A stretch of DNA of 64,000 nucleotides from an uncultured Craurococcus sp. (GTDB lineage: Bacteria > Pseudomonadota > Alphaproteobacteria > Acetobacterales > Acetobacteraceae): contig CADCTD010000049.1 of the NCBI GenBank assembly GCA_902805545.1, forward strand, positions 124,001 through 188,000, written 5' to 3'. The translations under genes and the position numbers were made by a program. The notes beneath the pieces were generated by a model, which was given only the letters and a program-made list of their open reading frames with translations, made no database searches and had not been told where the DNA came from. Shown here piece by piece: positions 40,517-42,490 of the stretch (position 1 is its first letter; every line of letters begins with the position of its first letter).

Positions 40517-41827
40517 TCAGGCGCCCTGGATGCGGGCGATGGCATCCTCGAGCGAGAGTTCGAGGCGCTCGCCGGTGGCACGGCGCTTCAGCTCCACCTT
40601 GCCGGCGGCGGCGCCCCGCGGGCCGATGATGGCCTGCCACGGATAGCCCATGAGGTCGGCATCGGCGAATTTGACCCCCGCGCGCTCCGGCCGGTCGTCA
40701 TAGACGGCATCGGCCGCGAAGGCGGCGTAGAGCCGGTCGCAGAGCGCATCCGTCGCGGCATCGCCCTGCTTCAGGTTCAGCACGGCGAGGCGGAAGGGAG
40801 CGACCGCATCGGGCCAGACGATGCCCGCCTCGTCATGGCTCGCCTCGATAATGGCGCCGACCAGGCGGGAGACGCCGATGCCGTAGCTGCCCATCTCCGG
40901 GGCCACCGGCTTGCCGTCCGGCCCCTGGACCTGGAGGCCCATCGGCACGCTGTACTTGGTGCCGAAATAGAAGATATGGCCGATCTCGATGCCGCGCGCC
41001 GAGACCTGGCGCTCGGCGGGAACGGCGTTCCAGGCCGCCTCGTCATGCTTCTCGTCGGTCGCGGCGTAGCGGCTGGTCCAGAAATCGACGATGGGGGAAA
41101 GGTCGCCCTCGTAGTCCGGCGCCTGGCCGAGCACGTCGAACTCCAGCAGGTCGCGGTGGAGATAGACCTGGCTCTCCCCGGTCTCGGCGAGGATCAGGAA
41201 TTCATGGGAGAGATTGCCGCCGATCGGGCCGGTATCCGCCTGCATGGGGATGGCCTTCAGCCCCATCCGGGCGAAGGTCCGCAGGTAGGCGACGAACATC
41301 TGGCGGTAGCTGCGCTGGGCGCCGGCAAAGTCGAGGTCGAAGCTGTAGGCGTCCTTCATCAGGAATTCGCGGCCGCGCATGACGCCGAAGCGGGGGCGCA
41401 CCTCGTCCCGGAACTTCCACTGGATGTGGTAGAGGTTGCGCGGCAGGTCGCGGTAGCTTCTCGCATAGGTGCGGAAGATCTCCGTCACCATCTCCTCGTT
41501 GGTCGGGCCGTAGAGCATGTCCCGGTCGTGCCGGTCCTTGAGGCGCAGCATCTCCGGACCGTAGGCGTCGTAGCGGCCGGACTGGCGCCAGAGATCGGCG
41601 GTCTGGATGGTCGGCATCAGGATTTCCTGCGCGCCGGCGCGGTCCTGCTCCTCGCGGACGATCTGCTCCACCTTCTGCAGCACCCGCCAACCGAGCGGCA
41701 GCCAAGCATAGATGCCGGCGCTGGTCTGCCGGACCATGCCCGCGCGCAGCATCAGCCGGTGCGAGGCGATCTGCGCATCGGCCGGGGTTTCCTTGAGGGT
41801 CGGCAGGAAGGCGCGTGACAGGCGCAA
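40517..41827 (-). CDS. proS: Prolyl-tRNA synthetase (short type)
   Basis: A 436-residue class II aminoacyl-tRNA synthetase that charges tRNA-Pro. Motif 2 lies in the [20 protein letters not shown] region and motif 3 in [17 protein letters not shown]. It lacks the ~180-residue editing insertion of the E. coli enzyme, as expected for alphaproteobacterial ProRS. The start is a TTG at 41827 with GGAG upstream; it gives [19 protein letters not shown], the normal family N-terminus. The frame is open 71 codons further upstream but that part is not protein-like. Confidence 0.93.
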
Positions 41828-42014
41828 GGCAGGCTCCAGGGGCTTGATCGGGCGCCGGAGACTAGTGGGGTGGCGCCTGCTCCGCCAGTGCTCCGGTTTA
41901 CGCCGGTTTGCAGCAATTTTCTTGCGATACCGCACTGCGTCACGAACGATTTTGAAAGAATTTTGCGCCCCGGCGTTGGTTACGCCTTGCCGGCGTGCAA
42001 GACCTGGGTTAGAC
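41828..42014 (-). promoter_or_regulatory. proS leader/promoter region
   Basis: 187 bases between the small-RNA terminator and the proS start, visibly AT-richer than the genes. It must contain the proS promoter because the terminator at 42015-42045 separates proS from upstream transcription. I could not pick a convincing -35/-10 pair, and no T-box or other known leader was recognised. Confidence 0.4.
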
Positions 42015-42045
42015 AAAAAAAGGGCCGCGCCAAAAGGCACGGCCC
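42015..42045 (-). terminator. Intrinsic terminator upstream of proS
   Basis: A 10-base-pair stem (42022-42031 with 42036-42045; one G-U pair on the minus strand) with a TTTT loop, followed on the minus strand by seven T (42015-42021). On the plus strand the stem has a C-A mismatch and no T run, so it acts for minus-strand transcription. It lies 185 bases beyond the DUF1467 stop, which suits the 3' end of the candidate small RNA. Confidence 0.85.
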
Positions 42046-42178
42046 GAGTTTAGGGAGGAAACGCCAGTCACACGGCAGAAAGAGGACCAACCCTCTTCCT
42101 GCCAGTATGGTGGCGCGGGAGACCAACGCGGCACAATCGGAATCGATGCCGCGAACGCTGAAAAAAGTGGCTCCCAGA
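42015..42178 (-). ncRNA. Candidate structured small RNA with anti-Shine-Dalgarno loop
   Basis: Read 5' to 3' on the minus strand the element has five stacked structures. P1 pairs 42168-42175 with 42117-42125 (8 pairs, one bulge). P2 pairs 42147-42153 with 42127-42133 (7 pairs) inside P1. P3 pairs 42092-42103 with 42074-42085 (12 pairs, including one G-U that works only on the minus strand). A small GTTT/AAAC hairpin at 42048-42062 displays the loop CCTCCCT, complementary to ribosome binding sites. A terminator follows. The 5' end is uncertain; TTTAAT at 42180-42185 could be a -10 box, or the RNA may be processed from the DUF1467 transcript. It matches no RNA family I can name. Confidence 0.55.
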
Positions 42179-42229
42179 CATTAAACGCAATAAAAAGAAG
42201 CGATACGGGCCGAGTTGGCCGAAAGTCGC

Positions 42230-42490
42230 CTACTTTTCGGGCATGGCCAGCCAGCCACTGCGGAAGCTCATATAGTCGCTGGTGATCACCGCGCGGGCGC
42301 CGAACCAGAGGACGACTGACACCAGCGTGGTGATGAGCAGCTTCCGCCAAAGCTGCGGATTCGCCGGCGTACCGCGCCAGCCGCTCTCGGCATCGCCCTC
42401 TGCCACCGGCTGCGTGCCGATGGGAAGCACGGCGAAGAGCACCACCCACCAGATGAGCACATAGACGACGATCCCGCTGACCCAGCCCAT
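42230..42490 (-). CDS. DUF1467 family membrane protein
   Basis: An 86-residue inner-membrane protein with two hydrophobic helices (residues 3-24 and about 50-68) and the family hallmark LPIGTQP after helix 1. Function unknown. It is conserved in Alphaproteobacteria next to rnj and proS, as here; it starts 12 bases after the rnj stop, so it is co-transcribed with RNase J. Confidence 0.88.
   Translation of the reverse strand: MGWVSGIVVYVLIWWVVLFAVLPIGTQPVAEGDAESGWRGTPANPQLWRKLLITTLVSVVLWFGARAVITSDYMSFRSGWLAMPEK

What the first reader, a model, noticed from the sequence alone, without database searches (positions are those of the whole stretch)
42015..42178. Structured small RNA candidate with an anti-Shine-Dalgarno loop between DUF1467 and proS
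The minus strand contains an 8-pair outer stem enclosing a 7-pair hairpin, then a 12-pair hairpin, a small hairpin exposing CCTCCCT, and an intrinsic terminator with seven T. Both non-canonical pairs are G-U only when read on the minus strand and mismatches on the plus strand, which supports this orientation. CU-rich anti-Shine-Dalgarno loops are a known hallmark of several alphaproteobacterial trans-acting small RNAs. No family I know matches this architecture, and it lies in an otherwise conserved gene block.
Basis: partly seen in the sequence, partly recalled or inferred. Interest (0 to 1): 0.72.

Follow-up and report, generated by a model that had tools for sequence, protein, structure and literature searches.

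The report
Second mmgR-type small RNA beside proS
This is a gene for a small regulatory RNA of a family already known across alpha-proteobacteria (mmgR/alpha-R8), here a second and apparently differently controlled copy next to the proline-tRNA-ligase gene; half of the structure first described looks like its promoter rather than RNA.

Summary
Real, but half misread. The 3' part (UUUCCUCCCU plus terminator, 42083-42008 minus) is an Rfam gathering hit to RF00519 suhB/mmgR, the alpha-R8 sRNA family (52.5 bits, cut-off 41), so "no family matches" is wrong. The 5' half (8-pair outer stem plus 7-pair hairpin, 42175-42117) is not supported as RNA: its pairing is no better than shuffled in seven genomes of the genus, and the best conserved letters there sit where a promoter has them (T42136, G42134, T42107 in 63 of 64 sequences, A42111 in 61). 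The likely transcript is about 88 nt, 42102-42015; its hairpin and terminator covary in 63 relatives. The genome holds two siblings. The other, L001, is the canonical FGase-linked copy; 17 of 17 such loci carry PhaR-type palindromes. The window copy belongs to a distinct DUF1467-proS orthologue group with a near-invariant 24-mer (142 of 299 genomes of its order), has no such palindrome, and 11 of 63 of its group do. Best mechanism, inferred: an Hfq-type trans-acting repressor masking GGGAGGAA Shine-Dalgarno sites, predicted for solute-uptake and acyl-CoA genes. New member of a known kind.

The parts
42015..42102 (-). predicted alpha-R8 (mmgR-type) sRNA, about 88 nt
   Evidence: RF00519 hit 42083-42008; fold z -5.1, 0 of 200 shuffles; lineage model R1, built from this group, 42113-42008, 106.7 bits; transcription itself not shown
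42076..42101 (-). 5' hairpin, 10-12 pairs, covarying
   Evidence: 90.7% of cells paired, 7 of 10 pairs with changes on both sides in 63 sequences
42062..42077 (-). weak hairpin TGCC-GTGTGACT-GGCG, near-invariant in this group
   Evidence: alignment of 63; 24-mer in 142 of 299 genomes of the order with at most 2 mismatches
42052..42061 (-). 10-mer TTTCCTCCCT, anti-Shine-Dalgarno, unpaired in the fold
   Evidence: identical to the alpha-R8 10-mer given in PMC12559287 (section 7)
42015..42045 (-). intrinsic terminator with seven T
   Evidence: 89.1% of cells paired over the 8 pairs counted
42107..42112 (-). putative -10 hexamer CACCAT (group consensus CATCAT)
   Evidence: A42111 in 61 of 64, T42107 in 63 of 64 sequences; no match in the E. 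coli-type promoter scan
42131..42136 (-). putative -35 hexamer TTGTGC, 18-base spacer
   Evidence: T42136 and G42134 in 63 of 64 sequences each
42157..42201 (-). conserved upstream block, possible regulator site
   Evidence: G42201 61, C42187 62, G42179 57, T42163 51 of 64; function unknown
   Evidence: 83.8% paired against 83.0% shuffled in 7 genomes
42230..42490 (-). DUF1467 gene, upstream neighbour
   Evidence: PF07330, 3.9e-21
40517..41863 (-). proS, downstream neighbour (start approximate)
   Evidence: PF00587 and PF03129

Best explanation
A gene for an alpha-R8 (Rfam suhB, mmgR/SisA-type) trans-acting small RNA, the second of two siblings in this genome, whose nearest named relative is Belnapia. 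It has its own promoter in the DUF1467-proS gap and makes an RNA of about 88 nt ending at the intrinsic terminator. It most likely works as SisA does in Caulobacter: with Hfq, the unpaired UUUCCUCCCU pairs with Shine-Dalgarno sites of the GGGAGGAA type and blocks translation. Predicted targets are periplasmic substrate-binding proteins (TctC type) and acyl-CoA and short-chain-dehydrogenase enzymes. Supported here: family identity, structure, orthology, promoter-like conservation. Inferred: transcription, Hfq dependence, repression, targets. It differs from the canonical sibling in its input: no PhaR palindrome, another conserved upstream block.
For: RF00519 above the gathering score (two matches in the genome). 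Identical 10-mer, weak hairpin before it, terminator after it, the family traits of PMC12559287 section 7. Covariation of hairpin and terminator in 63 sequences. DUF1467 and proS on the expected sides in 60 of the 80 named loci examined (of 117 found), one of them in 17, neither in 3. Promoter-like conservation. Target pattern GGGAGGAA-N3-9-ATG: 54 hits against 2 for the reversed pattern; 11 of 53 distinct sites precede TctC genes, about 1 expected if the genome has about 4,300 genes.
Against: No expression data. The E. coli-type promoter scan finds nothing. Target enrichment is not significant against the AGGAGGAA control alone (2 of 27 before TctC, p 0.11; 0.02 with both controls pooled), and both siblings share the seed. 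Hfq dependence was not tested. The plus strand folds equally well.
Confidence: 0.85

Rival explanations
1. A longer structured sRNA of 130-170 nt starting near 42178, as first proposed, with the outer stem and the 7-pair hairpin as functional modules.
For: Both stems are present in the window and the fold is strong; the inner hairpin is paired in 89.8% of cells in the genus.
Against: No covariation above shuffles and broken outer-stem pairs within the genus; the hairpin arms overlap the conserved -35-like hexamer.
Confidence: 0.05
2. A cis-acting leader or attenuator of proS rather than a trans-acting sRNA.
For: It lies just upstream of proS on the same strand in most loci examined.
Against: A sibling with the same core and terminator lies beside an FGase gene in the same genome; a terminator ends it about 150 bases before proS; the sister RNAs MmgR and SisA are trans-acting (PMC7143759 and PMC12559287 passages).
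Confidence: 0.05
3. A 3' UTR product of the rnj-DUF1467 transcript, processed rather than started at its own promoter.
For: It follows DUF1467 on the same strand.
Against: Promoter-like conservation between the two; a further stem with a T-run seems to follow the DUF1467 stop (by eye), although the scan does not list it.
Confidence: 0.04

Closest known systems
MmgR, alpha-r8 sRNA of Sinorhizobium meliloti (Rfam RF00519 suhB)
   Same: Rfam family; aSD core; terminator
   Different: Distinct locus (DUF1467-proS), strong extra 5' hairpin, near-invariant GTGTGACT loop, no PhaR palindrome in the window promoter; S. meliloti mmgR has one (PMC12542648 passages)
SisA-D, alpha-R8 siblings of Caulobacter crescentus
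   Same: Same 10-mer, weak hairpin and terminator; several siblings in one genome with unlike promoters (PMC12559287 section 7)
   Different: Other loci are reported there (sisA beside FGase); no sponge like CrfA was found here, and the search for one was shallow
L001, the FGase-linked sibling in the same genome
   Same: Same core CGTTTCCTCCCTAAACT and a terminator
   Different: Next to FGase, two PhaR-type palindromes, no GTGTGACTGGC
AbcR1/2 (alpha-r15)
   Same: CU-rich aSD motifs, transport-protein targets, partial likeness to RF00519 (PMC7143759 passages)
   Different: Two aSD motifs and 114-120 nt; another family and locus (same passages)

Membership tests
alpha-R8 / RF00519 suhB (mmgR) | covariance-model score above Rfam's gathering cut-off | tested here: met
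   52.5 bits against 41, model positions 1-77 of 77
alpha-R8 / RF00519 suhB (mmgR) | 10-mer UUUCCUCCCU, single-stranded | tested here: met
   42061-42052; unpaired in the predicted fold; no probing data
alpha-R8 / RF00519 suhB (mmgR) | weak hairpin just before the 10-mer | tested here: met
   UGCC-GUGUGACU-GGCG in the Rfam alignment; 3 pairs in the minimum-energy fold
alpha-R8 / RF00519 suhB (mmgR) | Rho-independent terminator | tested here: met
alpha-R8 / RF00519 suhB (mmgR) | own promoter and free-standing transcript | tested here: inconclusive
   promoter-like conservation but no scan hit and no RNA data
alpha-R8 / RF00519 suhB (mmgR) | Hfq binding and pairing with target mRNAs | not testable with these tools
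   target sites predicted only
canonical FGase-linked mmgR/sisA orthologue (subgroup) | FGase gene next to it | tested here: not met
   neighbours are DUF1467 and proS; L001 has the FGase neighbour
canonical FGase-linked mmgR/sisA orthologue (subgroup) | PhaR palindrome YGCRNYGCR upstream | tested here: not met
   none in the window copy; 11 of 63 proS-linked loci against 17 of 17 FGase-linked loci

The most novel reading that the evidence does not exclude
The proS-linked alpha-R8 RNA is a separate, ancient sibling lineage. It shares the target core with the PhaR-controlled FGase-linked copy but answers to another signal, read by the conserved block at 42201-42157. Its near-invariant GUGUGACU loop is a second functional element (a second pairing site, or a contact for a sponge or protein). 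PHB status and a second nutrient signal would then converge on the same uptake genes through two sibling RNAs.
Probability: 0.4. Interest if true: 0.5.

Novelty: new member of a known kind. Interest (0 to 1): 0.33.

Why it matters
It turns a 'no known family' candidate into a placed gene, and it shows that in this bacterial family alpha-R8 siblings sit at two recurring loci, one regularly with PhaR-type boxes and the other mostly without. If borne out, that makes a testable system for why bacteria keep sibling sRNAs with the same seed. It also shows that a strong single-sequence fold can come partly from promoter DNA.

Tried and rejected
Fold z-scores to decide the strand: both strands fold well. 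RNAalifold on the raw MAFFT alignment missed the 5' hairpin, probably because loop lengths differ; folding each sequence alone and naming the structure showed it. The first genus alignment had three rows in the wrong orientation and was replaced.

Target prediction: enriched for TctC genes against the genome (11 of 53 sites; hypergeometric 4e-9 with an assumed 4,300 genes) but not significantly against the AGGAGGAA control (2 of 27, p 0.11); with AAGGAGGG (0 of 15) pooled in, p 0.02. Kept as a prediction. Of the 54 hits 30 loci were read for ORFs (several gave short, doubtful ORFs) and 10 proteins were scanned with Pfam; the other 24 were fetched but judged only by their place next to TctC matches. 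Sponge: the only exact AGGGAGGAAACG sites in the genome are the complements of the two sRNAs; the 17 sites with one mismatch were not examined.

Prior description: searches of the held library for a DUF1467-proS-linked copy found none. The paper most likely to mention it (Lagares 2016, doi 10.1016/j.ympev.2016.03.026) was seen only as a reference, not read.

Rows dropped: one search lists 84 DUF1467 matches in 81 genomes; 82 loci were examined, two secondary matches (G090, G110) were not fetched. 64 of 82 entered the intergenic alignment, 63 the RNA alignment (truncated L079 left out), 32 of these 63 the upstream alignment. Of 117 stretches found I examined 80. Of 30 loci (L001, L003-L031) 17 showed an FGase match and entered the palindrome count; the other 13 did not.

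Full report
What is there. On the minus strand between DUF1467 (42230-42490) and proS (stop at 40517) all elements of the finding can be read. Rfam gives a hit above the gathering score for RF00519, suhB, described as mmgR, at 42083-42008 (52.5 bits, cut-off 41, E 6.2e-8). It holds the 10-mer TTTCCTCCCT (42061-42052) after a weak hairpin and before a terminator. These are the traits that PMC12559287 gives for the alpha-R8 family (section 7 read whole; otherwise passages).

Where the RNA begins. I collected DUF1467 loci from 120 genomes of the same family (81 with DUF1467; loci). In 64 of 82 loci the core lies 140-215 bases after DUF1467, mostly near 170. The alignment keeps a hairpin CAGGAAGAGG...CCTCTTTCTG, a nearly invariant CTGCCGTGTGACTGGCGTTTCCTCCCTAAACT, and the terminator. 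In 63 sequences the hairpin and terminator are paired in 90.0% of cells (83.4% shuffled, 0 of 500 as high), with 81 double-change cells (30.5 shuffled) and a covariation score of 0.250 against 0.144; slid versions pair in 48-59%. Each of the 63 folds into a hairpin at this place, some with internal mismatches.

In seven genomes of the genus (of eight searched) its pairs form in 83.8% of cells against 83.0% shuffled. The outer stem loses one pair in 3 of 7 and another in 6 of 7; the inner hairpin holds in 89.8% of cells, with one double change in one sequence. Slid versions pair less (33-54%), as they would for a structure derived from one of the rows. The 10-pair hairpin and terminator form in 140 of 140 cells. 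In place of structure the conserved letters are T42136 and G42134 (63 of 64 each), A42111 (61 of 64) and T42107 (63 of 64), in the hexamers TTGTGC and CACCAT with an 18-base spacer. I read these as -35 and -10, which puts the start near 42100, at the foot of the hairpin. Against this, the E. coli-type scan finds no promoter. A further block, G42201, GCA at 42188-42186, G42179 and a T-run at 42165-42162, is conserved upstream; its role is unknown. The RNA is then about 88 nt (42102-42015; z -5.1, 0 of 200 shuffles).

Two siblings. The genome has two RF00519 matches. The other, L001, lies beside an FGase gene (PF05013, 1.1e-77), which PMC12559287 gives as the usual neighbour of the single alpha-R8 copy. 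It lacks the GTGTGACTGGC part. PMC12542648 (passages) gives a PhaR palindrome with the core NYGCRNYGCRN, also in the S. meliloti mmgR promoter. I looked for YGCRNYGCR 190 to 25 bases upstream of the core. It is in 17 of 17 FGase-linked loci of the family (1.4 expected by shuffling); 14 of the 17 have two sites, 10 of them 47-48 bases apart. It is in 11 of 63 proS-linked loci, at varying places; that is more than the 3.2 expected, so the split between the siblings is strong but not absolute. The window copy has none.

Distribution. RF00519 occurs in 98 of 120 family genomes. The 24-mer TGCCGTGTGACTGGCGTTTCCTCC (up to 2 mismatches) is in 142 of 299 genomes of the order; all rows shown there are of the own family, and many of the misses are small genomes. 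In a class-wide sample it is in 1 of 385, the own genome, but that sample held only five genomes of the family, so it says the motif is rare outside and little about the inside. Of these 80 loci 60 have DUF1467 and proS on the expected sides, 17 one of them, 3 neither; some are contig ends. The nearest of the 80 is Belnapia moabensis, 89% over 6 kb. The lineage model R1 rings in 133 of 289 class genomes, with 106.7 bits in the own genome and at most 62 elsewhere. Of the 29 other loci given with that search, 9 have DUF1467 and/or proS in their flanks, so an alpha-R8 gene at this locus seems older than the family; horizontal transfer was not excluded. PMC1273637 (passages) had said that the suhB element is not associated with specific neighbouring genes.

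How it works. By analogy with SisA, where compensatory mutations showed direct pairing (PMC12559287 passages), the 10-mer pairs with Shine-Dalgarno sites. In this genome GGGAGGAA-N3-9-ATG gives 54 hits (53 distinct) against 2 for the reversed pattern. Eleven of the 53 precede TctC substrate-binding protein genes (86 matches in the genome; about 1 expected). Among the ten proteins scanned with Pfam are also a thiolase, short-chain dehydrogenases, an enoyl-CoA hydratase, an AMP-binding enzyme and two other periplasmic binding proteins. The controls AGGAGGAA and AAGGAGGG give 2 of 27 and 0 of 15 before TctC; against the first alone the excess is not significant (p 0.11). So this is a prediction, and it holds for both siblings, which share the seed.

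Verdict. A real sRNA gene by all comparative evidence, a member of a known family at a locus that I did not find described in the searches named under Tried and rejected; half of the reported structure is most likely promoter. What is new is the second, differently wired sibling lineage.

Noticed in passing
L001 and 16 other FGase-linked alpha-R8 loci: PhaR-type palindromes upstream in 17 of 17 loci, two of them in 14, 47-48 bases apart in 10: a regular arrangement that would suit cooperative PhaR binding.
   Followed up: partly
window 42201-42157: Conserved block about 60-100 bases before the likely start (GCA, GTCTG-like, T-run); possible site of an unknown regulator.
   Followed up: partly
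family alignment, between terminator and proS: A further conserved stretch (about GTCA-GC-n-TT) that might belong to the proS promoter.
   Followed up: no
window 42040-41863: The proS reading frame is open upstream to a GTG at 42040 inside the terminator; automatic annotation could place the proS start too far upstream.
   Followed up: no
same-family genomes without RF00519: 22 of 120 genomes lack a match, many of them small (1.9-3.7 Mb); the sRNA may have been lost in a reduced lineage.
   Followed up: no
own genome: 86 TctC substrate-binding protein matches, an expanded family, several with GGGAGGAA leaders.
   Followed up: partly
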